Assembly: GCA_023105745.1 (NCBI GenBank)
Contig: JALGQZ010000017.1
Location: 716,001 to 780,000 of the forward strand
Origin: Austropuccinia psidii
Taxonomy: Eukaryota > Basidiomycota > Pucciniomycetes > Pucciniales > Sphaerophragmiaceae
DNA length: 64,000 bases
Reading direction: 5' to 3'
Of this stretch, positions 8,799-50,580 are shown one piece after another; positions within the stretch are counted from its first letter, which is position 1; each line of letters opens with the position of its first letter. The notes below the pieces were generated by a model. It was not told where the DNA came from. It made no database searches and worked only from the letters and a program-made list of their open reading frames with translations. Position numbers and translations under genes: made by a program.

Positions 8799-10623
8799 TG
8801 TGAGCCTTAGAGGTAATTTCATATACCCAAAAGACCACAGATACAAAATTAACATATTAATATAAATAAAATAAATTTATTTATATTATTAAAATAAAAA
8901 TCAAAATATAAATATAAAATTATATTCAAAAAAAAAATAATAATTACAATTTAAAAATAAAATTATATTAAATTTTGGAATTATAAAATTACATTTATAC
9001 TTGAAAAAATTAAGTAAAAATGAAATTTTAACAAAATTGTAAATAAATAAATAAATTTGGAAAAAAGTTAAATAAAAATTATTATAACTTTTTATCCAAT
9101 AAATAAACATATAAAAATTATTTCACCATTGGATTCCTCATAAAAAATCAGGAGGGGTCACCTCTGAGTGAAATTCTTGTAACTCAACTCTAAATAAGCT
9201 TAAATTAAGTTTTTAGTATTTTCAATACAAAAGTTGAAAATCCTCAAAACATTAATTTAATTCACACCACATGTGGTGTTAACCATCAATTTTTGTGTTA
9301 AAATTGAGGTGTTGTGTTTAGTTTAGAAGTTATGAGGAATTGAAGTATTTTCAATTGAATTCAATTGAAATGTCAAAATGTGCGCGTGTATTACATAAGT
9401 GAACTTTGATTTACATATGAGGTATCAATTATTACTGTATTGTACTGTACAATTCAATTGAATTACATATGTAAATTATAAGTATAATACATGATGAGGA
9501 ATTAAAGGAAAAATAAATTGGAAAGATTAAATTTGGGGGGGAAAAGGAACTCCAGCTCTAAGGGGGAGCTAGACCCCCAAAATCCTTGCTGACAGGCGTG
9601 GGATGTCAAAATTCACACAAACGTTCATCACATTTGGCCTGGAATTGAGTTACAGGGTCTGTGGACTCAATTGATGATGAGGTTTTGATACCAACTGGGG
9701 TAGTTTTAGCTGCTGCCAAGAGGGTGAAACTACCCTTAAGATAAAACCATCATAGTAAAAACAGTTTTAACTGGTTTCTACATCTCGTACACACATTATG
9801 ACTTGTTTTGAAGGCTCTAGACCAGGTATTACTATAGTAATGGCTGATTTAAGGGTCTAAAATGGCTAAAAATGGCTTAAACCAGCCCTTTTTGGTCTAA
9901 ACCAGGGTTCAATGATGCCATAATTGGCTTTTCTGTTGTCAGACTGTTTTTCACGACTTACAAGAGTAAGTTTTACTTTTGGAGTAGGAAAATTGATGGC
10001 TATAAAGGTATGTCTTCTTTGCCCCACTTTTCTCTTCATGTTAGAATCTTTTCCTTTTATAATTAGTTTAAACATTGTTAAACCAATCAATAAAAGATTC
10101 CAACAACCTTTTTTAAATCATTTTTAACCTTTTAATCACGTGAAAAAATCATTATAATCATTGTTTGTAACTTTAATAATCATTTTTACCCCTGAACCAC
10201 CCCAAAAGTGAATTAAAGCATCTTTCATCACTGTAAGCTTTGTCACTCTGTTTCCAAATTCACTCTGGTCACTTTTGGGCGTGTTTTCTCTTTAATATTC
10301 TTTCCAAAGACTTTCTTCTTTAATTAATTGCTTGCAGTTCTTTGCTCAATTAATTCCAATTGAAATTGCTCTTGAAGAAATTTCTTTTGTAGCCTGAAAT
10401 ATCTCTTGTAAAGTATTTTTGGATAAATTTTTATTGTTGGTAAAACAATAAATCTTTATAATATTATTGTTTTATACTAATAAAGTTATAAAAAATCAAT
10501 TTGGCGTGTTATCTCTTAAAAATAATATCCTTTACTATTTTTAATTGATTTTTACCTTATACAAATTTTGAGGACAGGAAAAGTACTTGATTTTTAATCA
10601 AAGTTTCATATGCACACCTTACA
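8799..10623 (+). repeat. Ty3-A 5' LTR
   Basis: 1825 bp, TGTGAGCCTTAG..CACACCTTACA. It is very AT-rich at 8825-9110. It contains the hairpin-prone CTCTAAGGGGGAGCTAGACC at about 9556 and the inverted-repeat pair GTAGTTTTA and AAACTACCC at about 9700-9737. A minus-strand open frame at 9866-10090 recurs only because the LTR recurs (41339-41563) and is not taken as a gene. Confidence 0.92.
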
Positions 10624-10848
10624 TTTGGGGGCCCAGCCGTTATATTTTACCTGTGACATATTTTTTTTACTCTTTTTAAATCTTTTTTCTTATATTGAAA
10701 AATTTAAAAACATATAAAAAATACTTATAATTCAAAAAACCCATAAAAAATAATTTTTTTTCATATTATAAGTGAGGCTTATATTTTTATTTCTTTTTTG
10801 AAATGACCTTTTTTTTACTTAATTAATTGGCTTTTTCATTAATTTTAG

Positions 10849-11046
10849 TGTCTGAAAACGTGGTAAGACAAGAAAACATTGAAACAGCCTCAACAGTAAC
10901 CAGCATTATCCCTGCGAGTACTGTTAATTCTGATCATAATAGTGCTATTATTGTGACTCAGAATATTCAACCAGAGCCAATTTCTTCTGAATTAGTCAAC
11001 TTGGAAATAAGTAATACTCTTCAGAAAGCCAAAGATTTGGCCAATA
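10849..11046 (+). CDS. Ty3-A leader exon of spliced accessory protein
   Basis: This short upstream exon has a polypyrimidine stretch and TTTTAG ahead of it (acceptor AG 10847-10848). It begins with TG in frame. An upstream exon ending in A, for example at donor GTGAGG (10772, exon end 10771 A, 77-nt intron), would create the AUG across the junction. It encodes about 65 residues rich in Ser, Thr, Glu and Asn, with no recognised domain. It ends in phase 1 at the donor A|GTAAGT (11046/11047). Elements B and C have an exon of the same design at the same place. The splicing is inferred from sequence alone. Confidence 0.6.
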
Positions 11047-11096
11047 GTAAGTTTTTTGACGTAAAATTACTATTTTAAGCCTTTTTAACCATAATT

Positions 11097-12347
11097 ATGC
11101 CTTCAACCAGGTCAGGAGCCAGCTATAACCCCTCAAGCAGCTCCCAGAAAGGTAATAGACGTGATTATGGCAGAGGCCAATCAGGTACAGAAGGAAAAGG
11201 GTCAGTTGATGACTTCCAAACGACTAAAATGGGTCATTCTGAAGCTTATAATACCATTTTACCTTCAAAAAGAGCTGACACCGCCACAAGAAGCCTCTGT
11301 GGACATATACAAAGCCAGCCACAGTGCATACAACAATGCACTCCAGTTCAAGGAGTACCAGATCCTTTCAGACCTGTGGAAGCATTGCATGAATTCTTAC
11401 CTGACAGTGAGAAAGTTCCTGGGCCATCCCAATACTTGCAAATTGCTCAATGGATGGCATCCATTGATGGAGAAGAAAAACATGATGCTTTTGACACTAG
11501 AATGGAGGAAAAACAACCCTCCACCACTCAAACCAGTGCCAAAAACAGCCCCAGTGGCCAGTAGCAGCAATTCCAACATGAAAAAGCAGCCACAAACTCC
11601 AAACAAGGGCAAAGGGAAGGCACCAGCCCCAAAAACTTACAGCCAGGGCTACAGAATCCCAAAGATTCAACAGGATGCCATGGAAAATATATTTCAGATG
11701 GCCAGAACCATGATGGAATTACAAAAGAAGGAGGAAGCAAGATTAAAATATCAAAAATGATTTTTGCTACTTTTGATTGTATCCCAGAGTTGTATAAAGC
11801 CATTTCTGATGTAAAAAGTCATCTTTCTGATAAAAATACATCAATTTGTGACAATTGTAAAACAAATAACTTGAGTCTGAGTCAAATAAATGATACACTT
11901 AAATGCTTTGAAAGAGCTTTAAGAACAATAAAAGCTTCCAATAATGATAATTCTTTTGGCATTAAGATAAATGAACAATCTGCCATTATTAAAGAATTAA
12001 CAGACAAATATTCTAAATTCAATATTGATGACATAATTGAAACAAGAATAAAACAAGCCATAAACACTATCAAAAAAGATAATAAAAAAGCTCTTGATGA
12101 TATTTCAAAATCATTTGCAGAAGTAAAGACAAATACAGTTTCCTTGAAAAAGCATTTTGATACCTCAAGAGAGGAATTATCAAAATGAACAATAAAGATA
12201 AATGAAGTTATATCTGATAATACTAAGCAAACAGAATTATGGAATGAGCTTACATATAAAGAGGATGATCATAAAAAGAATGTCATAGACTCTATAAAAA
12301 TATTACAACATGAATTAAGAAATTCACAAAGGTGCAACAACAGTAAA
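11097..12347 (+). pseudogene. Ty3-A Gag N-terminal region
   Basis: ATG 11097 (MPSTRSGASYNPSSSSQ) opens a low-complexity Ser/Gln/Pro-rich stretch that overlaps the +1 accessory ORF to 11760. A Lys/Asn/Ile-rich, probably coiled-coil region follows (11757-12188). Stops TAG 11562-11564 and TGA 12186-12188 lie in the same frame, which otherwise runs on into the capsid and pol part. B has the same region fully open. This section begins only 14 nt before the splice acceptor used by the accessory reading. Confidence 0.75.
11111..11760 (+). CDS. Ty3-A accessory ORF in the +1 frame over gag
   Basis: Splicing from 11046 to acceptor ACCAG|GT (11110/11111; intron 11047-11110, 64 nt) enters the frame one base ahead of Gag. 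That frame is open without any stop to TGA 11758-11760 (216 codons). With the leader it would make a protein of about 282 residues. Features: SVDIYKASHSAYNN, LTVRKFL, NGWHPL, a Pro/Lys-rich linker with PNKGKGKAPAPK, and a helical C-terminus YRIPKIQQDAMENIFQMART. Element B encodes a clear homologue in the same relative frame. The Gag frame here carries a TAG (11562) while this one is intact. No known family was recognised. Alternatively it could be a Gag N-terminal domain reached by splicing. Confidence 0.6.
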
Positions 12348-15295
12348 ATGAATGATATTGAACAACTGCTAAACACCTTGCCAAGAATGTCTACACCTCT
12401 GAACCAAAATGAGGGAGCGAGAATTCCTAATCCACAAGTATTAGATATTGAAAATTCACAGTTAAAAGATGAATTTTCTACTTCTTTTCATAACTTGGAA
12501 CCATCAACGGGCCAAGCACTCTTGAAAGAAGTTCCAAAACTTAAAGAATGGCCTCACTTCAGTGGTGAAGGAGAATATGACCATATCGAATTAATTGAAG
12601 GTATTGACATGATAAAAGAGGATTTTGAATTACCAGACAGATTGGTAACAGCCATATTTAACACCTTGTTTACCAGATCAGCTCACAGATGGTACATAAA
12701 AATCAGACAAGCACATGGACACCAGAGTTGGACTTGGTGGAAAACCCAAATCATTAACAAATGGGCAAATGATTCTTGGAGGTTTAAAGTTGAAACAGCC
12801 TTTGAATCCGCCAAATTCAATTCTGATAAAGACAAAGATTTACCATGGTTTTGCCAAAAAAAAGACAGACTAACAGCATTATATGCTGACATGTCAGAAT
12901 TTATGATCCATAGAAAAATTCTGAGACAATGTGGAGGTGACTTAGAGCATGCTATCAAAAGCAGGACTACTGAACAATCTTCAGCAGAGGATATTATCAA
13001 TATATTAGAAGAAGTAACCACCAGAACCAAAATTGGTTCTAGTAGGGTGAATCTCAAAACAAGGTTTAATACACCTTGGAAAGATTCTGTGGACAAAAAC
13101 CCCAAAGAAACTTTTAATAATATGAAGTATAAATCTGCAGATACAGTTAGAAAGTGCCATATTTGCCAAAGCACCACCCATTTAGCCAATACATGTCCAA
13201 AGAAGGGAAAAATCAATGAAATTGATATTGAAAAGGAACCTGATGTTGAAAAGGATGACATAATTGAAGACAATTCAGATGATAAGTCATCAATATTTTC
13301 TGAATCTTCAAAGGATATAGAAAATCTCAATTCCACTTTTGACATCATGGAATCTTATTCCCACTTGCCACAATTGAGCAATGGCCAACTTGACTTATCA
13401 AAAGTTCAAGAGGCACAACTTATAAAAACAAAAACAAACAGAGGAAAAGGTTATACAGCTGGTAACTCCTGTATAACAGAAGTGGTGATTGACAACAAGC
13501 CCACCAAACGTTTTCTTGACCCAGGAGCCTTCTGCTCTTGTGTTGGAAAATCTTTTCTTAAGACTTGTGTACCAAACTTTGAAGACCAATTGTTACCAAT
13601 TGATGGTATAAAATTCAACAGTGAAAGTAATCCAATGAAAGCATTAGGAATCTTTAAGACCAATTTCATATTCCCACACATAAATAGGAATTTAAGAATC
13701 ACAGTTGAATTTGTTGTTATGGAAAATTGCTCTAGTACCCATTTTATATTGGGAAATGACTATTTAATCATGTATGGGATCGATTTGCATAACAACAAAG
13801 ACAGATACTTTACTATTGGAGACAATAAGCGCCAAAAATTCGCCTTTTTACCATTTAAAAGAAAAATTACAGTAATAAAAGTATCACCAGTCAACTTAGA
13901 GTTAGAGAAATTCAAGTCTGAACAGTTAAATGAGGCTGAAATAAGCGTTCATCTGACTGATAAACAGGAAAATGAACTTTCTTCCCTTTTGTATGACCAC
14001 AGAGAAGCATTTTCTTCAGACAAAGAACCTCTAGGAGCAATTATTGGTCATGAAGTTGACATAATTCTTAATATTGAGAGACCTTATCCACCACTCTTAA
14101 GAAGACCTGAATATCCAGCAAGTCCAAAATCAGGAGAAGCTCTAGAGATTCATATCAAAGAACTTCTGGACCTTGGTGTAATAAGAAAGGTAGGCCACAA
14201 TGAAGAAGTAGAAATAACTACACCAGTCATAGTGGCATGGCATGATGGAAAATCCAGAATGGTTGGGGACTTTAGAGCTCTAAACACTTACACTGTTCCA
14301 GACAGATACCCAATACCAAAAATCCAAATTTCCCTTACTCAAATATCTCAAGCAGTGTATATAACCACTATGGATGACCTTAAAGGATTCCATCAAAATG
14401 TGGTGACACCAAGAGCAAGAAAATACTTGAGAATTATTGTTCATTGTGGAGTGTATGAATACTTGAGGATGCCCTTTGGTATCAAAAATGCACCTTCACA
14501 CTTCCAAAGAATGATGAATGAAATCTTCCCTGAAGAACTCTCAGAGGGATGGTTAATCATTTACATTGATGACATTATTGTCTGTTCCAAGGCTTGGGAG
14601 GAGCACATGTACAGATTGTCCAGAGTTTTGACAAAAATTCAATCAGTAAACATGAAAATCTCCTTGAAGAAATGTCATTTTGGATTTAAAGAACTTAAAG
14701 CACTAGGACATGTTGTATCTGGTTTGTCCATTGGAATTGACAAAAACAAAGTTGCAGAAGTATTGGTAAAACCCATGCCTCAGAATAAGAAGGAAATTCA
14801 GTCATCCTTAGGTTTTGCAGGATATTAAAGGCAACACATTAAAGATTTTGCATCCATAGCAAGACCACTTTATAAATTGTGTGACAAAGACACAGTATTT
14901 CAAATGACTGTTGACAGAGTCAAAGCTTTTGAGTCTCTAAGAGAAGCCTTGACCACTGCTCCACTCTTACTGATGCCAGACTTTAAATTACCTTTCAAAC
15001 TGTATATTGATGCATAAGGGGATGGACTGGGTGCTGCACTTCACCAAGTTCAGATCATAAATGATAAACCTGTAGAAGGACCCATATGTTTCATATCTAG
15101 GCAAATCAAACCAACTGAAGCCAGATATGGAGCAAGTCAAATAAAATGTCTATGCCTTGTCTGGGCCTGGGAAAAATTAAACTACTTCTTGGAGGGATGT
15201 GTTTTTGAGGTGATAACAGATTGTACAGCTGTCAAATCACTTTTAAACATGAAAACACCCAACAGACATATGCTCAGATGGCAAATAGCCATACA
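12348..15295 (+). pseudogene. Ty3-A Gag-Pol: capsid, zinc knuckle, protease, RT, RNase H start
   Basis: 826 codons are open from 12348 to TAA 14826. In order: a retrotransposon Gag capsid domain (LKEWPHFSGEGEYDH, WTWWKTQIINKWAND), the CCHC knuckle CHICQSTTHLANTC (about residue 270), and a protease site altered to FLDPGAFCS, where B has DTGA. RT follows with [49 protein letters not shown] and YIDDIIVCS. After TAA 14826 and TAA 15015 the frame continues into RNase H ([43 protein letters not shown]), where the CACTA-like element interrupts it. The DTGA to DPGA change would itself disable the protease. Confidence 0.9.
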
Positions 15296-15314
15296 CACCA
15301 GGGCAATTTTCATG

Positions 15315-15332
15315 TGACTGGTTAGCCAGTCA
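15315..15332. repeat. Subterminal palindrome of the CACTA-like element
   Basis: TGACTGG-TTAG-CCAGTCA is a perfect 7-bp stem 19 bp inside the left end. The right end has the related TGACTGGCCAGCA at about 19802-19815. It may be a transposase binding site (inference). Confidence 0.5.
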
Positions 15333-17160
15333 TTTAATGTGTCCTGTCTATGACTTGGAAATGGCGATTAATGTGAAATTAATATAAACAAGATATAATT
15401 ACAAGATGACCTAAGAAAAGCCCAAATATTACCTGCATGAACTTCAGTATTAGATTTTTCTTTCACACCTGGGTTAGCTCAATATATGATTAAAAGAACC
15501 TTTCATAATATAACAATCATATTTGCAAAGAAAATTACATGGAACAGAAATGGGTTATTTCAGTATTTTGAGCAGTATCCTTTTCTTCTCAAGCACCTAT
15601 TATTCAAAATTTCCCCCCTTTTGAAATGTTTGAGAGATCAATAAATATTGTATAATTTGTGTTCATAGAGTCAAAAAGATAAAGTTTCACTTGCACTTTG
15701 AATATGCATATTCATTTTAATGAGCTATTTTATCACTTAATGGTCTTCCAAATTAGGCTATCAATTACTCAGTAATTCTGTGTGAGCTGTGTGATATGGG
15801 CAAAATATCTGTCAATTTAGGGATGAAAAAAATGGGAATTTCATCAATTAAGAATTAATATATATTGTTTAAGAGCACAATTTATTGCAGAAAAAAAGTT
15901 CATCATGTCTTGATATGAGCCCTAAATGTTCCATTGAGAGCACAGAATAAAAATTGATCAATATCCAAATATCAGAAATTATGAAATGGTTTTTGAAACT
16001 AATATCAAGAAAGCTCAGCCATACCCATATATTCCAAATTCAAACATCTTCATCATTTGAACCTTTTATACACTTCCCTCTGAAATGAAACACACCACCA
16101 ACAATTTCTGAAAGAAGCTCTGTGGACAAGAATTAATCTTTTTCTGACAGATAAGCAATGGAAATCCTTGAAGGTTTTAAACAGTATTTGATAAGATACA
16201 CCTTTCACATGCAGAAATCATCATAATTAAAGAAATATACTTAAATTTCATCTTTCAGGTAAATAGAAGCTTCTTCATTGTATTGAAATTTCCAAAAAGT
16301 CAGAACATATGTTTGGTAAAAGCATTTTTCCTACATTAGTATTTTCAATATACAAAGATTTGTGTCCACAGTAATATGTTTTGGTGGCGGTTGTTTTTAT
16401 AAAAGTGTTTTTGGTTTTTGGTTTAAATTTTACATAATCTACCTCAATATCCAATTATTTTTGAATAATATAAGAAATGTAGTAGTAATCCAAAGATGTT
16501 CAACCAAAAAATGTAAATTTAAGCTCAAAGATGAGGAATTTGGGCATTTTTTTAATTAGAAATTCATCTTCACAAGTATGTTGGCTACTCCATCATTATA
16601 ACACTATTTTCATTCTTTGCCAAAGTTTAGATCTTATAAAAAGTATGCCACTAGAACTTAAAGTTTTGCATTCTAATTACTGGGAAAAAATGAAATCATG
16701 AAGTTTATTCCCTCCTGTAAGGTTTATATTGAACCCCACTTTTTTCAAAAGTAATATGTGAACTACGAGTTTTCTTTAGGCAGGAAAAAGTGACAGGTTA
16801 CTCAGATGCTATAGAGTGGTGTGCACATGAATTATATTAACTGCTTGAAAGTACATCTTTAATTACAATTTCTGTTTCCCCACTCACTAAGCACTACTAC
16901 TAATGATAAATTTCAAGCCATTAACCATTAAAAAATTGGAAAATGTGAGTGTTTTTGAATAGTTAATATTGCAAAAAATATCAAATGACAACTGAGGTTC
17001 TCCATCAGTTTCTTTCATTTCCTCTCATGATGAACCTCCCTCCAAAGATGATTAAAATTATTTCACAATTATGTTCAAATGCATGAAATCACTCAGCTTG
17101 TTCCCATTGGCTTTCAGGGATAGATAATCAAAATAATATGTTCCTATACTAAAAAGGTTG
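15333..17160. other. CACTA-like element, left interior without genes
   Basis: AT-rich and non-coding by inspection: no long ORF, RNA gene or repeat unit was recognised, and stops are dense in all frames. Confidence 0.5.
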
Positions 17161-17164
17161 GGGG

Positions 17165-17690
17165 TTTGTTTATATCACCTTGTGCAGACAGCCCCCACAA
17201 GGTAGCTTTAAAATACAGAGGTCATTCATATGAGGTATTGTAAACAACCCCCCAGAACCAGATTCAAATGGCTGGGGGTGGTTTGATCCCACTAGTGTGA
17301 AAGGCCTTATAGCACCACCTCCAAGACTGTGGATTTGGTTAAAAAAAGGTTTTGTGAAAAACCCCCTAAAACCAAATAGAAATTGGAGGGGTGCTGTTTC
17401 CAACAACCCCCCAAAGCCAGATGGTAAAGGCCATGAGGTTGCTTGCATCAGCTGGCTCAAACAACCCCCTCAAAAGAGTGGCAAAAGTACAGGGGTTTCT
17501 TGCATTAGCTAGTGAAAACAACCACCCAAAACTGGTTGCAAAAGGCGGGGGATGGTTTGCATCAGCTCCTGCAAACAACCCCCTGAAACAAGCAGTAAAA
17601 GGCCAGGGGGTTGTTTTCATCAGCTAGCGCGAACAACCCCCCGAAACCGGCTGTAAAATACCAGGGGGTTGTGAACACCAGCCTCTGCAG
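17165..17690. repeat. Minisatellite of about 58-bp units
   Basis: About nine degenerate units are recognised by a CAACCCCC(C)(G/A)AA start, a GGTNAAAGGC-type middle, and a GGGGTTGTTTGCATCAGCT-type end. The last five (about 17400-17690) are the clearest and are spaced near 58 bp. Several short open frames cross the array on both strands only because the unit length rarely gives a stop; none is taken as a gene. Confidence 0.75.
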
Positions 17691-17917
17691 TGTTAGGATA
17701 TTGCAGGTGGGCCCTGGCAGCACCAGTCAAGCAAAACACTGAGGCATAATGGGTGGTTTCTCTCTACAATAGGAGAGACCCCCATGGATCTTAGCAAGGA
17801 ATGCCTCATTGCCTGCCACATGGGTGATTTGAGCCCATGGCAAAGTGAGCAAGTAGTGCAGACGCAAGGCTTACCAGCTAAGAGAGTAAAAATTGGATGT
17901 TGCCAGTTCATCCACAA

Positions 17918-18330
17918 TTTTGTATTAGTTTTTTTGAAAAAAAAAAATTTGTACTAGTTTTTTTCAAAAAACTATTTTTGTACTAGTTTTTTTCAAATAA
18001 ACTATTTTTGTACTAGTTTTTTTTTTAAAAAACTATTTTTGTACTAGTTTTTTTTTCAAAAAACTATTTGGCACCAGTGTTTTTTCAAAAAAATATTTTT
18101 GTACTGGTTTTTTGCAAAAAATCTTTTTTGCACTTGTTTTTTTCGAAAAACCATTGTATTATTTTTTTAGAAAAGCTGCTTTTTTGATTGGTTTTTTCCA
18201 ATTAACTGTTTGTTTAGTAGTATTTTCAAAAAAGTGTTTTTTTCCTACCTTTTACTATTCTTCCAAGGGTCTTTTAAAAAAACTATTTTCAAATAGTTTT
18301 TCAAAAACAAAGTTTAACTAATTTTTTCAT
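17918..18330. repeat. T-rich tandem repeat, about 31-35-bp unit
   Basis: Units of the form TTTTTGTACTAGTTTTTTTC plus AAAAAACTA repeat about seven times at 17918-18120 and then decay into a longer T/A-run region to about 18980. No coding potential is seen. Confidence 0.7.
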
Positions 18331-19839
18331 AAATGACTTTTTTGAAAGAATGTAGCTTTGTGGAAAAAAGAAGAATTTTTTCAATGTTACTCTTTTTTTT
18401 GTCAAAGAAAACAGCTAAATTTTTAACATAAAAACACTTTTTTGTAATTTTAGAAGCAAAATTTATCTTTCTAGGAAAGCTTTCCCAAGTAACTTTTTAT
18501 TTTGAAAATGCTGTTTTTTCCTCAAAAATATAGATTTTTTTCCAAAGAAACTTTTTTCAAAAAAAACTAAGAATTCCACAAGAACTATTGTTTCAACAAG
18601 AAAATATTTTTCTGTTCAAAGATGTTATTTTTTTTGAATAGAACTACATTTTTCAGAAAATCTATTCTTTTTTTCAAAAAAAACTCTAACTGAATCATTT
18701 GATTTAAAACTCCAACTTTGAAACAAGAAACCAATCTTTTTGCAGAAAAAAACCCATGGAATTCAACTTAAGAAAACAAGATTTTTCTGCTAAGCAAAGT
18801 GTTCTTTCAGAAAACTCTGATTTTTGTAGAAAAGAAAAAATAATGTTTTCATCAAAAATACTTTTGAAAAATGATTCTCATCATTACCCAAAGTAAAAGA
18901 CCTTTCTTATCCAAAAATTAACTTCAAAAACCCTTTTTTGAGCTCAAAAAAATATGAAAATCCATAAGGAATCCTAGACTATCACTGACTTTATAAAATT
19001 TCAAAATTATGATGGGATTATTCAACAATAAAGCTTGTAGTTCTGATAGAAAAACTAACTTGGAATTTCTTTGGATCACACGTAAATGAAAAGAATTTAT
19101 CAATATTTCATAAAGACATTAATTCACATGCATGGAGAACATTATACTTTGGATCAGAAAATTCCTAATTTATAACTTCTTTTATTTATACAATTCACCA
19201 AAAATCAGAAGAGTATTAAATTTATAGCATCTATATAATTATCTTGCTTTAAACTATTTTTGACATTCAAAACTATGTTATTCTCCTCCATTCCTTGAGC
19301 ATATCACTTAATTTACTTTCAGTGATCTTAATAAGTACTCTTCTCTTCTATAGATTCAATTTGGTTCTCTTAAGAGGTTGGGAATTTCTTTTTTTTCAGT
19401 TTCCTGGAAAAAATATAAATACTAGCTTCAGTATATTGCAAGAACACAAAGGGGATTAACATTTATTATCTGATGGATAATTTCTTCATTTATGTCAGAT
19501 ACTCTTGTAAATTATTCTCATTGAAAATCCTTGACCATTCTGTAAATTAAATGAAGTGAGAGTGTACTTGTGGCAAGTCTAAACCTCTAGAATAAAGGTA
19601 AGTGAAATTTGTATTTTTGGCAATTTTTAATGTTGCATGCTTTTATTATTATAATAAAGTCCTTCTCTTGAGAAAAATTAAAACACTGTATTTTTAACTC
19701 ATAAGAATACAAAAGGAATATTTAAGTGATATCAGGGTAAAAATAAAGTAACATATTAAGAATAAACAAAGTATTCCAAAGCTCTCTCCTGGTCATAATG
19801 TGTGACTGGCCAGCAAGTTACTCCAAAAATGGCCTGGTG
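18331..19839. other. CACTA-like element, right interior without genes
   Basis: Poly-T and poly-A rich sequence, non-coding by inspection, running to the right terminal repeat that ends in CCTGGTG at 19839. Confidence 0.5.
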
Positions 19840-19842
19840 ACA

Positions 19843-21568
19843 ATAATACAGAGGAAATATGACTATTGTTCATAAGGATGGGAATATTCATAAGAATGCA
19901 GATGGACTAAGTAGAGGGCCATTAACAAATAATCTTGATAATCCTGCTTATGTGCCAGAAGAAGCTTCACCACAAATTCCAATAGAAGGAATAAGTGTTA
20001 CAGACTTGAACACCACCTTCTTTGAAGAAGTCAGAAGTAGTTACACTCAAGATAAGAATTGTAGCATCTTATGCCAATTACTTAACAAAGACTGTAAAGA
20101 CAACTCTCTAATACATGCCTTGGATGAATTATGGAGAAAATCTTGTGATAAAGGGAGATTTCACCTACTGGATGGTATAATTTACCACAGAACCAAGAAC
20201 ACATGTGTCATGACAGTTGTAGACAGGTCATTAATCAATCTTGTACTGAAAGAATGCCATGATAGTCCCTTTTCAGGACATTTGTCTGAAGACAGAACAA
20301 GAGAGAAAGTAAAGACCTGCATATGGTGGCCAATGTGGCAGAAAGATGTTGCAGAGTATTTCAAAACCTGTGACAGATGCCAAATGGCAAATAAATCCAC
20401 TGGCAAGAGACTTGGAAATATGATAAAAATCCAAGAACCAAACAGACCTTGGCAAATTGTCCATATGGATTGGGTAACTGGCCTACCACCAGGAGGTGAC
20501 AGAACCTATAATGCTTGCCTAGTAATTGTGTACAGATTCAGTAAAACTCCAATCTTTTTACCGTGTCACAAGGATGATACCGCCATGGATACAGCTCTTC
20601 TGATATGGAATAGAGTAGTATCATGGACTGGGATATTTACAAATATCATTACTGATAGGGATCCCAAATTCACTTCAGCACTATGGACAAATCTTCACCA
20701 ATTATTTGGCACTAAACTGTCTTTCTCTACAGCCTACCACCCACAAACTGATGGCCTGAGTGAAAGGATGATCCAAACCTTGGAGGACATGGTGAGAAGA
20801 TTTTGTGCATACGGCCTTGAATTTAAAGATTGTGATGGATTTACCCGTGATTGGTGTACTCTGTTGCCAGCACTGGAATTAGCATATAAAACATCAATCC
20901 ATGCCAGTACCAATCAGACTCCTGCTATTCTAGAAAAAGGATGGAACCCCAAGTTACCCCAAGATTCCTTGAGGAAAGATTTAATTGAAATACATCCCAC
21001 AGCTGCTAGCTTCAAAGGAATGCTAGACAAAGCTAGAAAGCATGCAGTAAGGTGCATGGAGGACTCTTTTGCATATGCTAAAGACAAATGGGATAAATAA
21101 CATGCAACTCCAGATTTCAAAGTGGGGGACCTAGTTCTTGTATCCACCACTAACTTCAATAACATCAAAGGATGTAAAAAGTTGAAAGACTCCTTTGCAG
21201 GACCTTTTGTGATTAACGCCCTCCATGGAGAAAATGCTGTTGAAGTAGAGTCATCTGAAGAACTTAGCAACAAGCATCCTACATTTCCAGTGAGCTTGAT
21301 AAAGCCATATAAATCTAGTGATGCCGAGAAATTTCCCTTGAGGAATAAGATTCCCCAAGTTATACCTCCCATTGAGACATCTGGTACTAAGAAAATTACC
21401 AAAGTTCTTAAAGAAAGGAAATAAAGAACCAAGAAAGTGAGGGAATACCTTGTTAGGTACAGTGACCCAACTTGTGAAGATGAATGGTTAGAAGAAAAAG
21501 ATATACCAGAAGCTACCAAACTCCTCAGGAGATTCAGAAACACTAGAAACACCAATATTAAAGAGTAA
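19843..21568 (+). pseudogene. Ty3-A integrase and chromodomain-like tail
   Basis: Pol resumes after the CACTA-like insert with [20 protein letters not shown] (RNase H end). Then come the HHCC zinc-binding domain (KECHDSPFSGHLSEDRTREK, CDRCQMANK) and the integrase core [23 protein letters not shown] and [17 protein letters not shown], with Asp, Asp and Glu present. A normally conserved VDR after the first Asp reads VYR. TAA stops occur at 19844, 21098 and 21422. The tail EYLVRYSDPTCEDEWLEE is chromodomain-like, and the frame ends at TAA 21566-21568, 23 nt before the 3' LTR. Confidence 0.9.
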
Positions 21569-21591: not shown

Positions 21592-22554
21592 TGTGAGCCT
21601 TAGAGGTAATTTCATATACCCAAAAGACCACAAATACAAAATTAACATATTAATATAAATAAAATAAATTTATTTATTTTATTAAAATGGAAATCAAATT
21701 ATAAATATAAAATTATATTCAAAATAAAAAAAATTAATTACAATTTAAAAATAAAATTACATTAAATTTTGGAATTATAAAATTACATTTATACTTGAAA
21801 AAATTAAGTAAAAATGAAATTTTAACAAAATTGTAAAAAAATAAATAAATTTGGAAAAAAGTTAAATAAAAATTATGATAGCTTTTTATCCAATAAATAA
21901 ACATATAAAAATTATTTCACCATTGGATTCCTCATAAAAAATCAGGTGGGGTCACCTCTGAGTGAAATTCTTGTAACTCTACTCTAAATAAGGTTAAATT
22001 AAGTTTGTAGTATTTTCAATACAAAAGTTGAAAATCCTCAAAACTTTAATTTAATTCACACCACATGTGGTGTCAACCATCAATTTATGTGTTAAAATTG
22101 AGGTGTTGTGTTGAGTTTGGAAGTTATGAGGAATTGAAGTATTTTCAATTGAATTCAATTGAAATGTCAAAATGTGCGCGTGTATTACATAAGTGAACTT
22201 TGATTTACATATGAGGTATCAATTATTACTGTATTGTACTGTACAATTCAATTGAATTACATACCTAAATTATAAGTATAATACATGATGAGGAATAAAA
22301 GGAAAAATAAATTGGAAAGATTAAATTTGGGGGGGAAAAGGAACTCCAGCTCTAAGGGGGAGCTAGACCCCCAAAATCCTTGCTGACAGGCGTGGGATGT
22401 CAAACTTCACGCAAACATTCATCACTTTTGGCCTGGAATTGAGTTACAGGGTCTGTGGACTCAATTGATGATGAGGTTTTGATACCAAATGGGGTAGTTT
22501 TAGCTGTTGCGAAGAGGGTAAAACTACCCTTAAGATAAAACCATCATAGTAAAA
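21592..22554 (+). repeat. Ty3-A 3' LTR, left part
   Basis: It begins TGTGAGCCTTAG after the purine tract and matches 8799-9760 closely. It is broken at 22554 by transposon X, with TSD TAGTAAAA at 22547-22554. Confidence 0.92.
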
Positions 22555-22668
22555 GGGCAGTGATATTTCCACGCCTTAACCTAAAATTTACGCCTACGCC
22601 TATGCATAAAATTGTGGATTCAGATACGCCTTCACGCCTTTCATGGATGTAGTTTGCTAAATCCACGC
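22555..22668 (+). repeat. Transposon X left terminal inverted repeat
   Basis: The 114-bp TIR holds six ACGC(C) motifs within 114 bp. These are candidate transposase contacts. Several have become ATGCC or AGGCC in the right copy. Confidence 0.85.
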
Positions 22669-22789
22669 ATCCAAGTGATTACTAAATCCACGCCAAATAA
22701 GATGTTGATAAGATTTTTATCTCAGAAATTTGACAAAAAACTCCAAAATGAAAAAATGCTATGTACAAGTGATCTGTCTACATTTGCGG

Positions 22790-24076: not shown

Positions 24077-24369
24077 ATTCAAAAGGTGTAGTAGAGTGTG
24101 TGTGTGTCATATTACTTATTATTACCTCTGACCGGAATTTCATCACTATTGAGTGTAGAATACACTTACTGTGCGGAGTCATGACTTCGAACAGCTTTGT
24201 GCCAAGCGGCTTATAAGATTATCCAGTGTGCTTTTTTCAACTGAGTGCAAAAAAAGTCACGGGTAACAAGTTGATGCCACAATTATCACAATAGAGAATA
24301 ATTGTGCTTATGGGAATTTAGTGTAAAAAGAGAAAGATATGAGAGAAGTGAGGCCAGGAACCTTCTGAG

Positions 24370-24790: not shown

Positions 24791-24797
24791 ATTTAAA

Positions 24798-26990: not shown

Positions 26991-27023
26991 GCCTCACCTG
27001 TCGCTTCTTGCTTTTTCAACAAT

Positions 27024-33000: not shown

Positions 33001-35806
33001 CAAAGGCATTTTTATACTTAAATAAGAGGTCAATCAATTTTTCTTTCATTTTTTCTGTTAATTCTTGATTGAATTCTGCCTCTTTAAGTTGTTCAGATAT
33101 AAAAATTTCTTTTTCTGGAATTTTTTCTTCCTTCTTAATAACTGTGATTTGTTTTTTGTTATTTAAGAAGCCAAACTTTTGTCTTTTCTTATCTCCTATG
33201 GTAAAATATCTGTCTTTTTGGTTGGAGATATCTATACCATAGATTGATAAGTAGTCATTCCCAAGTATGAAATGATTACTAGTACAGTTGTCCATTACTA
33301 CAAACTCTACTTTAATTCTAACACATTGTGAGGGATGAGGAAAAATTAGTGTTAAATCAATTATTCCAAGGGGCTTCATGCTCTCACTTGCACTACTAAA
33401 TTTGACACCTTGTATTGGCATAAGTTTTTCTTGCCAATTTGGGACAATGGTTTTTAAATAACTTTTGCCAACACAAGTGCAATATGCTCCTGTATCCAAG
33501 TTAACTTTTCCTTCCTGGTTATCAACCATAACAATACTTATACTTGATTTTCCAGCTGTATATCCCATTCCTCTTGCAGGTTTGGTTCTATACATTTTGG
33601 CATCTTGTATGTTTGTCAGGTTTGTGTCAGATGTTCCAACTTGTGGTAAGTTTGAATTAACATCCAGTACTTCATAAATTAAGTCAATATTATTAATTTG
33701 TGCATTAATTATATTGATTTCATCACTTTCAGAGCTTTCTGACTCTTCTGTCTCTTTTTCAGAGTCAGATTCCTCTTCTTTGTAATTGTGGCTTTCTGTT
33801 TCCACAATTTCATTAATTTTTGCTTTTTTAAGGCAATTATTGGCTAAGTGTCCAATACCTCCACATTTATGGCATTTTCTTTGCTCATTATTGTTGGATG
33901 TATTGGGCTTAAAGGATTCTTTTGATTTATCTTTTCTGATAAATGGTTTATTTGGGCTTTTAATGTCCAATTTTTTCCAAGTCCTGCCAATTTTTGTTCT
34001 TGTCACTATATCTTCTAGTGCATTTATATACTCTTCTGTGGAGCATGGTTCTATACATCTGCTTCTTAGGGCATGTTCTAGTTCCCCTCCACATTTTTTA
34101 AGTATTTTCATATGCACCATCTTCTGTGACATTTCTGGGTATAGTGCATTAAGTCTTTCAACTTGTTTTAAGAACCAAGTTAAAGGTTTGTCTTTCTCTG
34201 GGTCAAAGAAAGAGTTTTCAAATGCATTTTCTATCTTATACCTCCAGGCATCATTTGCCCACTTGGTGATTATTTCTTGTTTCCACCAAGACCAGGTATT
34301 TTTACCATTTGTTTGTCTTATGCCATAATACCATCTTTTTGCAGATTTCTCAAACAAAGAATGTAATCTTGCAGTGATTAATTCATCTGGTATGGCATAA
34401 TCTTCTTGTAACATGTCAATTGTTTTAATGAATGACATGTGGTCATATTCACCTTCTCCTGTGAATGTTGGCCATTCTTTCAGTTGAGGTGCTTCCTTCA
34501 TTAAGACTTGGTTATTATCTTGGTGACTCAAGTCTGTTATGAAAGGATTTGACAATTCCTCTTTTGTTTTAACAGGGCTTCTTATATGAGAAAATGGTGT
34601 TGATAACTTTGGCATATTTAAATTAGCCTCATTAATTTTATCCATTTTTTCAGTGATAAGTCTTATTTCACTCTGAATATCATCTTTCAGATGCATTCTT
34701 GCTTCATCACTTTTTTCCACATGGTCCAAAAGTAATTTTTGGTGTGATGAAGTCTTTTCTTCAAATTTTTCTACAGAAATACTTAATTTATTCAATTTTT
34801 CTGTAAGATTGTCAATACTCACATCATAATTGATTGTCAAAGTTTTGTCTTTGATATCTTTTATGTATTTATACAATTCTTGTTGTCCTTGTATTAATTT
34901 TTGAGTATTGTCAATTAAATTCTTTGGTTTATTATTTTCAACAATAAACTTAATGTTGTCAATTTCTTTCTTGTTTTGCACAACAATTTTTGTTAAAGAA
35001 GATAAATTGTTATTTATTTCTTGTAGTGATAATAAACTTTCTTTAATTTCTTTTAGAGGTAATATACTATTTTTAATTTCTGTTAAAGTATTTACAACAT
35101 CTTTGGACAAGGTTATTTCTTTGGGAAATGAGGTTGTCTCATTCTTTGCTCTTCCTTGTCCTTGAATTCCATCAAGGTTCTGGCCATGTTGAAAACATTG
35201 TCCATGGCATCCTTTTGGATTCTTGGGATTCTGTAGCTTGGGGAATATGGTTTCCTCCAATGCTTTTTCTTGTTCTTCTTCCCTTCTTGGGGAAGTGGGT
35301 TGGCTTGGGGCTTGCTGGTAGAAGCTACTGGGGCTTCTTCCTTGGTTGCCTTCCTCTTTTTGGCATGGTAATCCTTGATTTTTTTGATTTGAGGTTTGGA
35401 TGACAGTGGATTCCATCCATTGGAGTATTTCACTATCTCCTCCTCTTTGAGGAACTTTTTCAGGATGTGCCAGGAGTTCATCACTCCTTGGTGTATTTGA
35501 GGCAACATTTCCCAATCTTTGTCCTTGTACACTGTGCAATACTGCTTGTACTGGCTCATGTAGATGTCTATTTGAGCCCTCTGAATGTGATTTGTACCTG
35601 TTTGAGTTACTCATACTTAGTTCTAATTCAGGCTCAGATATCATGGGCATTTCTGGGACTTGCCTTTGGGATAAGGCACTTCCTTGTGTGGATTCTGTTC
35701 CACTGGGGATATTGCCCTTTCTTTTCCCTTTTGAGGGATCAATTCTACCTCTGAGTCCAGCTCCATCTGATTGGATGGAGTATTGGGAACCTCTTCTGGT
35801 AGTCAT
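30017..35806 (-). CDS. Ty3-B Gag-Pol polyprotein, one in-frame stop
   Basis: ATG 35806 opens a single 1930-codon frame, broken only by TAA at 31021-31019 inside integrase (TPMF*PCHKDD; A has Leu there). In order: a low-complexity Gag N-terminus (residues 1-225, overlapping a second frame), coiled coil (about 225-400), capsid ([15 protein letters not shown]), knuckle [14 protein letters not shown] (about 645), protease [11 protein letters not shown] (about 770), RT with FHQNVLTD and YIDDIIVCS (about 1120), and RNase H ([15 protein letters not shown]). Integrase carries the HHCC motif, [22 protein letters not shown] and [12 protein letters not shown], and a chromodomain-like tail ([20 protein letters not shown]). 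All catalytic residues are present, so apart from the stop the copy looks competent. Confidence 0.93.
35113..35795 (-). pseudogene. Ty3-B accessory ORF in the +1 frame over gag
   Basis: From the acceptor at 35795 the +1 frame is open for about 50 codons ([20 protein letters not shown]..). It then meets four stops within 33 nt (35643-35611) and is open again to TAA at 35115-35113. The second open part is clearly homologous to [58 protein letters not shown]. The stop cluster may mark a second intron, since candidate GT and AG sites flank it, or decay of this frame in B. The protein is unrecognised; the [10 protein letters not shown] stretch is a possible nuclear signal. Confidence 0.55.
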
Positions 35807-35882
35807 AATTAAAGAATAAGAAAAAATAAAAGTATTTTAGAATAAAAATTCTTTTATGGCAATTATAAAAAGAGGTGCTCAC

Positions 35883-36032
35883 CTTCAGAGTCTTGAATGG
35901 TGGGTCCTGGAAAGTCTAATTTCTTAGCTTTCTTTATTTTGGTGATAACTGGTGTTGGAGAACTTTGACAAGTTTCTTCCACCAACCTCTCAACAGTAGC
36001 TTGGTTATCTTCTGTTGGGTTATCTTCAAACA
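35883..36032 (-). CDS. Ty3-B leader exon of spliced accessory protein
   Basis: After TTTTTTTAG the exon starts with TG in frame at 36032 and encodes an acidic then basic peptide of about 49 residues (FEDNPTEDNQATVERLVEE, ..KIKKAKKLDFPG). It ends in phase 1 at GAAG|GTGAGC (35883/35882). An 87-nt intron (35882-35796) ends at ACTACCAG, 11 nt past the Gag ATG. The layout is the same as in A and C. Only weak upstream donor candidates ending in A were found here. Confidence 0.55.
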
Positions 36033-36534
36033 CTAAAAAAGACAAATAAATATAAGTCTTTATATAAGAAGTGTTATTTTTGGCAAGATATGGCAATTTT
36101 CCACGTAGAAATTGCTTTATATCTTAAAAAATTGAAATAAAATAAAGAAATGAATAAAAATGAATAAAAATAACTTTTTTTATTGGTTTTTAATATTTTT
36201 TAATATTTTTTATGTATTTTTTATTTTTTAAAGAATAAAATAAAAAAGAATATGATTCTTATAAAATTAAATTATAATAAAATTATTTTTAATTTATAAA
36301 ATATCTTTTTTAATCACTAGAGTCACTCAAAGAAAGTTCTTGCAAGTCTAAGGATGTGAAAAACCACGTGTAAGACAGTACAATAGCTTTCCAAATGCCT
36401 CAATAGCTTTTAAAATCAATAAAATATAAATTTATTATATAATTTATGATTATAAATATAATTTATTATTGGATAAACCCAAATAGAATCTTTTTAAAGG
36501 TCTTTTAAGTAAATATCACGGCCAGGCCGCCAAA

Positions 36535-47916: not shown

Positions 47917-48216
47917 TGGAAGAAAATTTCATACCACTTGAGACCCAGTCACAGGCCAACACCCCAGTGACACCCTCAGAACCAGAGGGCAGCAAGGGCA
48001 AAGGAAAAAGACTTAGTGAAGGCCTCATTACAGCCAAAGAGTGGACACCAATAGCCACTCAGAGGAGTAGAAAACCACGAAACTTTGCTTCAATACAAGG
48101 TAAACCAACCTTAACCACTTGTACAGGGAAGATTACAATTATTAACCCAGTTGTAACCTCCAAAGGCAAACTGCCCAAATCAGCAGATAAAAAATTTGTA
48201 CAAGGCACAGTCAAAG
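47917..48216 (+). CDS. Ty3-C leader exon of spliced accessory protein
   Basis: The exon follows TTTAATTCAG and begins with TG in frame. A strong donor upstream, TTACAA|GTAAGA (exon end A at 47366), would complete the AUG (A|TG GAA GAA). It encodes about 99 residues (EENFIPLETQSQANTPVTPS..) rich in Thr, Pro and Lys, and ends in phase 1 at CAAAG|GTAAAT (48216/48217). A 68-nt intron leads to acceptor TCTCAG at 48284, 20 nt past the Gag ATG at 48265. An earlier GT at about 48098 is an alternative donor. Confidence 0.58.
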
Positions 48217-48264
48217 GTAAATACCCTAAGAACATAAAGTTTTTGACTGCTTGAAAACACTGAT

Positions 48265-50580
48265 ATGTCCCCTGCATATCTCAGAGACTTTGGCTTCCAA
48301 AGGAACCAACCAGAGGACAGAGAAGGCTTGTCCAGCACCAGAAGACCTGGAAGAAGACACCTTGGACACAGTGGTGGATGGCAAAACAATGAGGGAGATA
48401 ATATCAACCTTGCCATTCACAATCCAATTCAACAGGAACCTCAAACCAGAGGACTGGAAGGATATGGATCAAGTTCTTCAGCTCCACCAACTCCTCAAAA
48501 ACTTATTTCAATGGAGCATGGACAACAAGAGGTTCAACCTGGCAAGTCACTGGGCAGAACTTGGAGCAAGTTGGCAGAAGATCTGTCTCAAAGAGATAGA
48601 CTTCAAAGACCTGATGGTAATCACCAAAGATTGGAATCCTACCAGGTAGTTCAGACTCCTGGAGGCAAGGGCACAGAGGATAAGGGAGAACCAAGCCACT
48701 ATCCAAGCTATAGAAGAACAGTTAACCCAGACAGGGCCTACTCAGATTCCTTCAGGCTCACAAGGAGCAGGCCAAATCAGCTCTCCAGTGGCTTCACACC
48801 ATTCAGAAACCAGCAGATCAGTGGCCAAGAGTCACCATTCTTCACAATTCCAGGAAGTTTCCAGGAGAAGACAAGGAAACAAGGGTAAGAACAAAACCTC
48901 CTTCAACCAGAGGAGAAAAGAGTCAGACCCTATGATTCAGAAGCTGTTGGATTTGGTAAAAGAAGTGCACAAGAACCAGAAGTAGTTGTAAACCACTCTA
49001 GAGTAAGTAGTCCTAGTAATAGAAACATTACCCCCACTCAGACTGAACATAACATTGTCACATCTGAGAGTAACATCAACAGTCATACACTGTGGTTACA
49101 AATGTCCCAATATGCTCAACAATCTGCAAAGCAGTTTGTAGAAATTGAAGCTGGCCAAGAGAGGATGAGAAAAACTCAAGCCTCCTTGGAACAGATAGTT
49201 AAGAATCTTCAAGAAGGATATTCTCAGCTGAGCAAAGCCTCTGAAGAAACCAACAAAAGACTGAATATAGTCTTTGAAGAACAACACCACAGCATAAGGG
49301 ACAGGGATTGTCTGGACCAAGACATAAAGAAATTGTTTAATGTCTACCATAACTTGAATCCCCAACCACAAGGCCAAGTTATGGAGAATCCATATCAACC
49401 AGATGAAATCAAACCAGATGCCATGTTGATGAATAAAGCAAGATCCCCATCACAATACCAGGATGGACATGGCATGTCTTATTCAGAGAAGGAAGCCTTG
49501 AAACAGCTTCCTGAGGCCTCAAATTGGCCCAAATTCTCTGGATCAGGAGAATATAATCATATGGAACTCATATATTATATTGATGGACTCTTCATTGATG
49601 TACCAAGCATAACAGACTACTGCATCACTGCTAGATTGAATACTGCATTTAAAGGTCATACTAGTATATGGTACACAGAAATGAAAGAAATCCATGGCAG
49701 AAGAAACTGGCCATGGTGGAAGAGTCAAATCATCCAAAAGTACAGTAATGGAACTTGGATATGGCAAAAGACAATGTCATTTGAAAATGACAAATACTCT
49801 GTGGACAAAGATCCATATGAGTGGTGTCTTAGACAGTCTAAAAGACTTAAAGCCATTGATCCTGAGATGAACATCCAAATGAGGAATCACAAACTTCTGA
49901 CACAATTTCCAGGAGAGCTAGAGCATGCAGTAAAATGCACATGCAACCAAAATTGCACTCTAGATGACATTACCAACACCTTACAAGACATAAGGAAAAG
50001 GACTAATATAGGGAAATTCACCCCATATAAGAGCAGTAGTTTCAAAGAGAAACAACCTGTCAGGGTAGAGTTTAAAGACAAACCCAAAGAAAGGGTGGCA
50101 GAAGTGGCAAAGAAGAGGAATTCTTGTCACAATTGTGGTTCAACAGACCACTATGCCAACAACTGTCCAAAGGCAAAGAAAAAAGTCTATGCCATAGAGA
50201 ACGTCCCTGAGGAAGAACCTCCGACAGAGGATTCTGAATCAGACTCCATGGGTGATGCCATCAGAGAACCATCTGATGATGATCAAGACCCAAGAGAGGA
50301 ATTTCTAGTGGAATACCAAGAGGAAACCCCACTAGAAATCCAGGACAGACAGTTGGAAGCAGGCATGCCACAGGACACTGCTGACAAGAGCTTGTGCAAA
50401 CACACACAAGATGCACAAACATTCCTGGCTACACCAACCAAAGGAATGGCAATTATACATGGGATAGCCACAAAAATGACTGTTTGTATTGACAATGCTC
50501 AGCACCCACTGATAATTGATAGTGGAGCACACTGCTCCATAGTGGCCAGAAACTATCTGGATACCCACTTCCCAAACTGA
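48265..50580 (+). pseudogene. Ty3-C Gag and protease
   Basis: ATG 48265 opens the Gag frame (low-complexity N-terminus), with TAA 48886-48888, then open from before 49102. A coiled-coil segment (QTQASLEQIVKN-like) precedes the capsid domain (ASNWPKFSGSGEYNHMELIY, NWPWWKSQIIQKYSNG). Then come the knuckle CHNCGSTDHYANNC and the protease LIIDSGAHCSIVARNYL. It stops at TGA 50578-50580 where A and B suggest Trp (PNW). Gag builds the particle; the protease would process the polyprotein. Confidence 0.88.
48285..48985 (+). pseudogene. Ty3-C accessory ORF in the +1 frame over gag
   Basis: The join GAG|ACT continues in the +1 frame relative to Gag: ETLASKGTNQRTEKACPAPE, a helical part with FNLASHWAELGASWQ, KDWNPTR at the place of NGWHP/NGWNP in A and B, and a Lys-rich C-terminus ending MIQKLLDLVKEVHKNQK and TAG at 48983-48985. 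One internal TAG (48647-48649) follows KDWNPTR; the frame beyond it is still protein-like (FRLLEARAQRIRENQATIQA). Unrecognised family. Confidence 0.55.

What the first reader, a model, noticed from the sequence alone, without database searches (positions are those of the whole stretch)
10849..11760. Spliced second reading frame inside the gag of Ty3 element A
Seen: a leader exon (10849-11046) ends in phase 1 at A|GTAAGT, and an AG acceptor at 11109-11110 lies 14 nt after the Gag ATG. Joining them reads straight into the +1 frame, open for 216 codons to TGA 11760. The Gag frame over the same bases carries a TAG (11562) but the +1 frame has none. Inference: unspliced RNA makes Gag-Pol, spliced RNA makes a separate protein of about 282 residues of unknown function. 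I know of no description of such a protein for these elements.
Basis: partly seen in the sequence, partly recalled or inferred. Interest (0 to 1): 0.92.

Follow-up and report, generated by a model that had tools for sequence, protein, structure and literature searches.

The report
Spliced overlapping gene inside retrotransposon gag
In a gigabase fungal genome rich in mobile elements, several related Ty3 retrotransposon families appear to use RNA splicing to make a second, separate protein from the same DNA that encodes the start of their Gag protein, much as complex retroviruses make regulatory proteins; no RNA was examined.

Summary
Two other Ty3 elements in the window (B, C) and a family from sampled genome stretches (D, L039) share the anatomy: a leader exon starting AG|TG, a phase-1 donor, an intron of 62-87 nt containing the Gag start codon, an acceptor inside the first Gag codons, then a frame +1 to Gag. 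The A, B and D proteins are homologous (30-44% identity); C shares the layout, but its homology to A is not significant. In the overlap, changes follow the +1 frame (pN/pS 0.20-0.44; Gag frame 0.64-2.24), except a short B exon with six changes. The leader exon also evolves as coding DNA (0.08-0.28). B and D carry a predicted extra 66-nt intron at the same place and phase; removing it restores the frame that A has uninterrupted. The start codon is probably assembled by splicing (A|TG). Best role guess: a CERV/Rev-like regulator of unspliced RNA (about 40%). There is no RNA evidence, and the search for intron-less copies did not complete. The window copy has two stops in its Gag frame.

The parts
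8799..10623 (+). 5' LTR of element A (end approximate; the shared match runs to 10626)
   Evidence: 8799-9760 matches 21592-22554 (96.7%) and 9753-10626 matches 41226-42099 (96.3%), i.e. a 3' LTR that looks split by a later insertion.
10772..10848 (+). predicted intron 1 (TATAA|GTGAGG ... TTTTAG|TG); its removal would make the start codon A|TG
   Evidence: Only A|GT donor candidate within 220 nt of the acceptor; donor string in 30 of 30 and acceptor+TG string in 29 of 30 top-scoring copies. Inferred, no RNA evidence.
10849..11046 (+). leader coding exon of the overlapping gene, 198 nt (TG, 65 whole codons, one base)
   Evidence: Open in 118 of 20000 shuffles; pN/pS 0.08-0.28 in this frame, 1.02 or more (or no synonymous change) in the other two; open and of right length in 28 of 30 copies.
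11047..11110 (+). predicted intron 2, 64 nt, GTAAGT...ACCAG, contains the Gag start codon
   Evidence: donor in 30 of 30, ATG-acceptor string in 29 of 30 copies; equivalents in B, C and D.
11097..11099 (+). Gag start codon, inside intron 2
   Evidence: Sequence; same arrangement in B (35806), C (48265) and D (L039).
11111..11760 (+). main exon of the overlapping gene, frame +1 to Gag, ends TGA
   Evidence: Homologous to B (58 identical of 152 aligned codons) and D; pN/pS 0.21-0.44 in +1, 0.68-2.24 in Gag frame.
11097..14828 (+). Gag-Pol frame of A; in this copy stopped by TAG 11562 and TGA 12186; RT match 14244-14714
36033..36174 (-). element B predicted intron 1 (AAAAA|GTTATT ... TTTTTTAG|TG)
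   Evidence: position inferred.
35883..36032 (-). element B leader exon, 150 nt
   Evidence: pN/pS 0.09 against copy L048.
35796..35882 (-). element B intron 2, 87 nt, contains Gag ATG (35806-35804)
   Evidence: 17 of 88 alignment columns differ from L048.
35664..35795 (-). element B exon 2 (132 nt) in +1 frame
   Evidence: but its six changes against L048 fit the Gag frame better.
35598..35663 (-). element B predicted intron 3, 66 nt, AAG|GCAAGT...AAACAG|GT; read as Gag in unspliced RNA
   Evidence: same length, phase and place as intron 3 of D; one of 10 donor-acceptor pairs of 138 that restore the frame, not the top scorer against A.
35113..35597 (-). element B exon 3 in +1 frame, ends TAA
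   Evidence: tblastn to A 36% over 154 aa, E 9e-24; pN/pS 0.20 in +1 against L048.
47917..48216 (+). element C leader exon, 300 nt, after TTCAG|TG
48217..48284 (+). element C intron 2, 68 nt, contains Gag ATG (48265)
48285..48985 (+). element C main exon in +1 frame (one internal TAG at 48647-48649 in this copy)
   Evidence: 90% to L034 over 114 aa, 31% to L040 over 75 aa.

Best explanation
Element A belongs to a group of Ty3 LTR retrotransposons that carry an additional, intron-containing gene overlapping the 5' part of gag in the +1 frame. SHOWN by sequence and comparison: leader exon, phase-1 donor, intron-like stretch holding the Gag ATG, acceptor within the first Gag codons, coding-type evolution of leader exon and +1 frame, equivalents in other families, and in B and D one more phase-matched intron-like stretch. 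INFERRED: unspliced RNA keeps the Gag start codon and makes Gag-Pol; spliced RNA loses it and instead gains a start codon (A|TG across intron 1), making a protein of about 282 residues: acidic leader, helical domain, Lys/Pro-rich linker and C-terminal helix. MOST LIKELY ROLE (about 40%): a regulator of the element's own RNA, comparable in action to CERV of Cer1 or Rev of HIV-1, made from spliced RNA and needed to bring intron-containing genomic RNA out of the nucleus or to limit its splicing. The confidence given is for the spliced overlapping gene, not for the role.
For: Coordinates confirmed. +1 homolog in B, E 9e-24; D and further copies in sampled stretches. A-B differences in the overlap at Gag positions 1/2/3 are 91/71/55, but 52/35/83 in a Gag-only control. 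pN/pS: A overlap 0.21-0.44 in +1 against 0.68-2.24 in Gag (7 pairs, not independent); B exon 3 0.20 against 0.64; leader exons 0.08-0.28 (A, 3 pairs) and 0.09 (B). Third-position excess, one A and one B pair pooled: leader 24 of 35, overlap 41 of 72 (p 2e-5 and 3e-5). After removal of 66-nt introns B and D read through to homologous proteins (106 identical of 239). The Gag frame is also kept open: 0 of 4000 (L005, window copy, C) and 0.08% (B, second part) of +1-synonymous shuffles have as few Gag-frame stops. TG directly follows the acceptor AG in A, B, C and D, and none of those four leader exons has another ATG in frame.
Against: No RNA, cDNA or peptide was seen. The scan for copies that lost intron 2 did not complete. 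A against C homology is not significant (hhalign E 0.42), and A-C and B-C differences show no third-position excess (130/94/128 and 132/119/133 at +1 positions 1/2/3). In L040 the Gag frame is open through the overlap while the +1 frame has three internal stops and the leader is broken. B exon 2 evolves like Gag (pN/pS 0.16 Gag, 1.43 +1), on 6 changes. Intron 3 of B has competing boundaries. Among 30 copies one lacks the TG after the acceptor (L015), one has a frameshifted leader (L004) and one lacks the exact ATG-acceptor string (L018). The A model is weak (mean pLDDT 62.8) with no significant fold or family match; nothing links it to RNA export except gene layout.
Confidence: 0.87

Rival explanations
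1. The gene is real but structural: the spliced product is a particle component (matrix- or Gag-like helper), with splicing used to set its amount relative to Gag.
For: Basic, mainly helical main-exon product with a linker and C-terminal helix; it overlaps gag and would be made beside it.
Against: No Pfam match and no significant fold match; the Gag-Pol frame itself continues into a conserved region with a zinc-knuckle-like match (at or below Pfam cut-offs); a Gag start codon placed inside the intron looks more like a switch.
Confidence: 0.22
2. The gene is real but counters host defence, for example as a suppressor of RNA silencing or of DNA-methylation-based silencing, as small overlapping viral genes often do (recalled).
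For: Overprinted gene with no known domain. PMC8063080 (passages) infers deamination of methylated cytosines in TEs of a rust fungus with a genome of similar size, so silencing pressure is plausible.
Against: No direct evidence; any accessory protein could be argued this way.
Confidence: 0.2
3. The +1 frame is a by-product: Gag codon usage and low stop density leave it open, and the splice sites are chance or cryptic.
For: Open +1 alone is not rare given Gag (4-11% of shuffles); AT-rich DNA offers many GT/AG; 10 of 138 pairs in B and 3 of 92 in D restore a frame.
Against: Between A and B, and between close copies, the +1 frame is better conserved than the Gag frame in the overlap (B exon 2 excepted); the leader exon, which Gag does not cover, evolves as coding; same anatomy in A-D.
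Confidence: 0.05
4. The +1 product reaches Gag-Pol: the +1 stop overlaps an ATG (ATGA at 11757-11760), so spliced RNA may be bicistronic with termination-reinitiation into a short Gag-Pol.
For: ATGA in the window copy and in the plus-strand copies shown.
Against: The ATGA is absent in B (TAA), C (TAG) and D (TAG); the upstream Gag frame is kept open.
Confidence: 0.05

Closest known systems
CERV of Cer1, a C. elegans Ty3/Gypsy element (PMC10309623; abstract, passages and section 15 read)
   Same: Ty3-type element; separate protein from a spliced mRNA whose first exons lie in gag; splice sites kept in the genomic RNA; a protein without known relatives in the libraries searched here.
   Different: CERV is 517 residues from 5 exons; [quoted passage not shown] Here the whole main exon overlaps the start of gag in another frame.
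Rev and similar regulators of complex retroviruses (named in PMC10309623 section 15; rest recalled)
   Same: Regulatory protein from spliced RNA overlapping other frames; would act on unspliced RNA.
   Different: No significant family or fold match found; no export role tested.
sORF1/sORF2 of MDG1-group Drosophila elements (PMC11952523; passages)
   Same: Accessory frames at the 5' side of gag in Ty3 elements, with signs of coding constraint.
   Different: They lie upstream of gag and are short (sORF2-like 63-107 residues); sORF2 is a transmembrane, fusogen-like protein, whereas the A main-exon product has no strongly hydrophobic 19-residue stretch (highest mean 0.86).
Spliced subgenomic RNAs of plant elements: short GAG of EVD, Ogre intron and ORF1 (recalled; only search listings seen)
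   Same: Use of splicing, or of an extra ORF before gag, in LTR retrotransposons.
   Different: EVD splicing makes GAG itself; Ogre ORF1 is not an overprint of gag (both recalled).

Membership tests
Ty3/Gypsy LTR retrotransposon | gag-pol with reverse transcriptase, RNase H, integrase in that order | tested here: met
   RT in A; RT, RNase H and integrase zinc-binding domain in B in that order; integrase domains in 19847-21097, taken as the continuation of A.
Ty3/Gypsy LTR retrotransposon | flanking LTRs | tested here: met
   A: 96-97% identical LTR pieces.
Spliced accessory gene of an LTR element (CERV-like in layout) | splice sites and exons conserved between related elements | tested here: met
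   A, B, C, D; 28 of 30 top-scoring A copies with open 198-nt leader.
Spliced accessory gene of an LTR element (CERV-like in layout) | coding constraint in the accessory frame | tested here: met
   A and B families: (B exon 2, 6 changes, does not show it). Not shown for C.
Spliced accessory gene of an LTR element (CERV-like in layout) | spliced RNA observed | not testable with these tools
   No RNA data; the pattern scan for intron-less genomic copies did not complete (first try, last).
CERV homolog | sequence or fold similarity to CERV | not tested
   CERV sequence not fetched; no significant Pfam or PDB match for this protein.
Rev/CERV functional class | nuclear protein required for export of unspliced RNA | not testable with these tools
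   Needs cell experiments.
MDG1 sORF2 / FAST-like | transmembrane segment | tested here: not met
   Highest 19-residue mean hydropathy 0.86 in the A main exon; the leader was not scanned this way.

The most novel reading that the evidence does not exclude
A whole clade of Ty3 elements in a gigabase fungal genome has its own retrovirus-style early/late switch: splicing destroys the Gag start codon and at the same time builds the start codon (A|TG) of an overprinted regulator that controls the fate of unspliced genomic RNA; in some families part of gag is itself an intron of that regulator.
Probability: 0.4. Interest if true: 0.86.

Novelty: new variant of a known kind. Interest (0 to 1): 0.74.

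Why it matters
Overprinted, splice-expressed accessory genes are typical of complex retroviruses. Here one is conserved across diverged families of fungal Ty3 elements, with an unusually tight layout: one splice removes the Gag start and another probably makes the new start. It would give fungi a system for asking how elements export intron-containing genomes, how an overlapping gene gains or loses introns inside another frame, and what allows Gypsy elements to expand in rust-type genomes. It also warns that automated gene and TE annotation may miss or misname such products. In the listings of my literature searches (at most 20 papers listed each) I saw no description of it; the library holds only open-licence papers.

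Tried and rejected
Protein database search: switched off. Fold search of the A main-exon model: no match at E 0.001 or better, best PDB match an MIT domain at E 0.36, not used. Pfam and PDB sequence searches: nothing convincing. Reinitiation at ATGA: rejected as general, absent in B, C and D. Frame openness as main evidence: rejected as too weak. Copies whose leader/5' gag region appears replaced by other DNA (L031, L041) were looked at and left out as uninformative. L032, L033, L035 and L049 hold pol matches at their edge without the 5' gag region; L036 and L037 hold only distant pol matches whose gag was not examined; L038, L043 and L044 had no hit. In one search the A Gag-only control was read in the wrong frame; one search repeats it correctly (e.g. 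17/20/34). One search failed on a script error and was repeated.

Bias: L001-L030 are the best-scoring copies for the +1 frame (150 scored of 40,229 candidates) and L001 is the window copy itself, so intactness of +1 there is expected; only leader, splice-site and Gag counts are informative. L031-L045 and L047-L049 were taken at arbitrary fixed positions; L046 extends L042.

Full report
What was checked. The finding's coordinates are exact. In the window copy the leader exon 10849-11046 is open in one frame, ends in phase 1 at A|GTAAGT, and the acceptor AG at 11109-11110 ends on the 14th base of the Gag frame (ATG 11097). Joined, the frame runs to TGA 11758-11760: 282 residues if started at A|TG. 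The Gag frame of this copy has TAG at 11562 and TGA at 12186, so it is a Gag-defective copy. Of the 30 top-scoring copies (the window copy is one of them), 25 have no stop in their first 366 Gag codons.

Where it lies. The window is C17:716001-780000 of a 1,015,390,075-base, 84-contig genome. Size and Gypsy content resemble the myrtle-rust fungus Austropuccinia psidii (1.02 Gb, 66 contigs, over 90% TE, mostly Gypsy: PMC8063080, passages), but the assembly is unnamed, so that is an inference. The +1 protein has at least 150 relatives there (150 scored of 40,229 first-look candidates).

Is the open frame alone evidence? Hardly. With Gag codons shuffled synonymously, 4.1% (window) and 7.2% (L005) of 5,000 shuffles also leave +1 open; B read without removing intron 3 (five +1 stops) and C (one) are matched by 10.7% and 11.2%. 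The leader exon is stronger: 118, 828 and 167 of 20,000 dinucleotide shuffles of the A, B and C leaders stay open in the A|TG frame.

Other elements in the window. Element B (minus strand) is 56% identical to A over 872 aligned columns of its gag-pol frame, and element C (plus) 42% over 742. Both show the same plan. Leader exon lengths are 198 (A), 150 (B) and 300 (C), all multiples of three; each begins with TG right after the acceptor and ends in phase 1. Introns of 64, 87 and 68 nt follow, each containing the Gag ATG and ending inside the first Gag codons (ATG...ACCAG, ATG...TACCAG, ATG...CTCAG).

Sampling. Fifteen 10-kb stretches at arbitrary positions, and later three more plus one 1.5-kb extension, were examined. 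Relatives of the +1 frame were found in L034 (C type), L039 (new family D), L040 (C-like, E), L042 with its extension L046, L045, L047 (A types) and L048 (B type). In L031 and L041 the region appears replaced by other DNA. So 7 of 7 stretches in which I could recognise the 5' part of gag of this group have it; more distant Ty3 elements in these stretches were not examined. Copy condition: D is open in +1 (after splicing) and in Gag until about codon 270. L045 has leader and +1 open but a Gag stop; L047 and L042 have stops in both frames; L048 has stops in the leader and in exon 3, and a Gag stop. L034 has stops in both frames, and L040 has a broken leader and three internal +1 stops with an open Gag frame.

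The extra intron. In B and D the +1 frame is interrupted just before the conserved IDIY/VEIY motif. Both have a 66-nt segment there with splice-like ends and matching phase: B AAG|GCAAGT...AAACAG, D AAG|GTTAGC...TGTTAG. Removing it gives continuous proteins with 106 identities in 239 aligned positions between B and D, 92 of 246 between A and D, and 68 of 226 between A and B. A has no such interruption. In D the chosen pair is the best of 3 that restore the frame (of 92 tried); in B it is one of 10 (of 138) and not the top scorer against A (225 against 228), chosen because its donor fits the AAG|G(T/C)AAGT consensus (recalled) and because it matches D in length, phase and place. In unspliced RNA the same 66 nt are read as 22 Gag codons. 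The donor is kept in L048 and its acceptor still ends in AG.

Which frame is constrained? Between A and B the overlap differs at Gag codon positions 1/2/3 by 91/71/55, the pattern expected if the +1 frame is protected. A Gag-only control further on differs by 52/35/83, the normal Gag pattern. A-C and B-C, much more diverged, show no third-position excess in +1 (130/94/128 and 132/119/133). Between copies: A overlap +1 pN/pS 0.21-0.44 and Gag 0.68-2.24 in seven pairs (not independent); B exon 3 0.20 and 0.64. Leader exon in its own frame 0.28, 0.28, 0.08 (A) and 0.09 (B), other frames 1.02 or more, or without synonymous change. Pooled third-position excess (one A pair, one B pair) is 24 of 35 (leader) and 41 of 72 (overlap), p 2e-5 and 3e-5. 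Against: B exon 2 shows the Gag pattern (0.16 against 1.43), on six changes. Conversely, the Gag frame is kept open beyond chance given +1: 0 of 4,000 shuffles for L005, the window copy and C have as few Gag stops, 0.08% for the second part of B. I conclude that both frames are real.

The start codon. None of the four leader exons (A-D) contains another ATG in frame, yet those tested (A, B) evolve as coding sequence, so translation must start upstream or at the junction. TG follows the acceptor AG in A, B, C and D and in 29 of 30 top A copies. A|GT donor candidates exist 41-207 nt upstream within the 220 nt scanned (a single one in A and in B). A start codon split by an intron fits best. It is inferred.

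The product. The A main exon encodes a basic protein (pI 9.9) and the leader an acidic one (pI 4.4). AlphaFold2 with six sequences gives mean pLDDT 62.8, with residues 61-140 of the main exon at block means of 70-85, mainly helices, then a low-confidence Lys/Pro-rich linker and a C-terminal helix. Single-sequence confidence was 43.6. There is no convincing fold or family match. A/B/D against C/E is not significant by profile comparison (E 0.42); C is linked to A by layout, and to E by sequence (31%, E 9e-10).

Mechanism. Because the Gag ATG sits in the intron, an RNA is either genomic/Gag-Pol (unspliced) or accessory (spliced). Such elements must get intron-containing RNA out of the nucleus. 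In Cer1 this needs CERV, itself made from a spliced mRNA whose first exons lie in gag (PMC10309623; abstract, passages, section 15). By analogy I give about 40% to a regulator of the element's RNA, about 22% to a structural helper, about 20% to a counter-defence protein, and the rest to unforeseen roles or to no gene.

Limits. The claim of a spliced gene rests on comparative sequence evidence only.

Noticed in passing
22555-41225: An about 18.7-kb segment, containing element B, splits the 3' LTR of element A. Its ends are 115-nt inverted repeats (93.9% alike), and 8 LTR bases (9753-9760) are matched on both sides like a target-site duplication: a large DNA-transposon-like insertion.
   Followed up: partly
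15296-19844: The pol match of element A is interrupted by about 4.5 kb of other DNA between 15295 and 19845.
   Followed up: no
17929-18252: Run of about 30-nt T-rich imperfect tandem repeats within that interruption.
   Followed up: no
11760-12179: The window copy differs from three other A copies by 71-72 of 420 bases just after the overlap but only by 26-40 of 645 inside it; dual-coding constraint or a recombinant copy.
   Followed up: partly
L039 (-), 7109-7048 and 6912-6847: Family D: overlapping gene with predicted introns of 62 and 66 nt; the latter is coding for Gag when retained.
   Followed up: yes
L040:7966-8700: C-like element with open Gag frame but three internal stops in the +1 frame; the accessory gene may be decaying or be arranged otherwise there.
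   Followed up: partly
58986-59688: Fragmented, more distant Ty3 pol (about 25% to A) with several stops.
   Followed up: no
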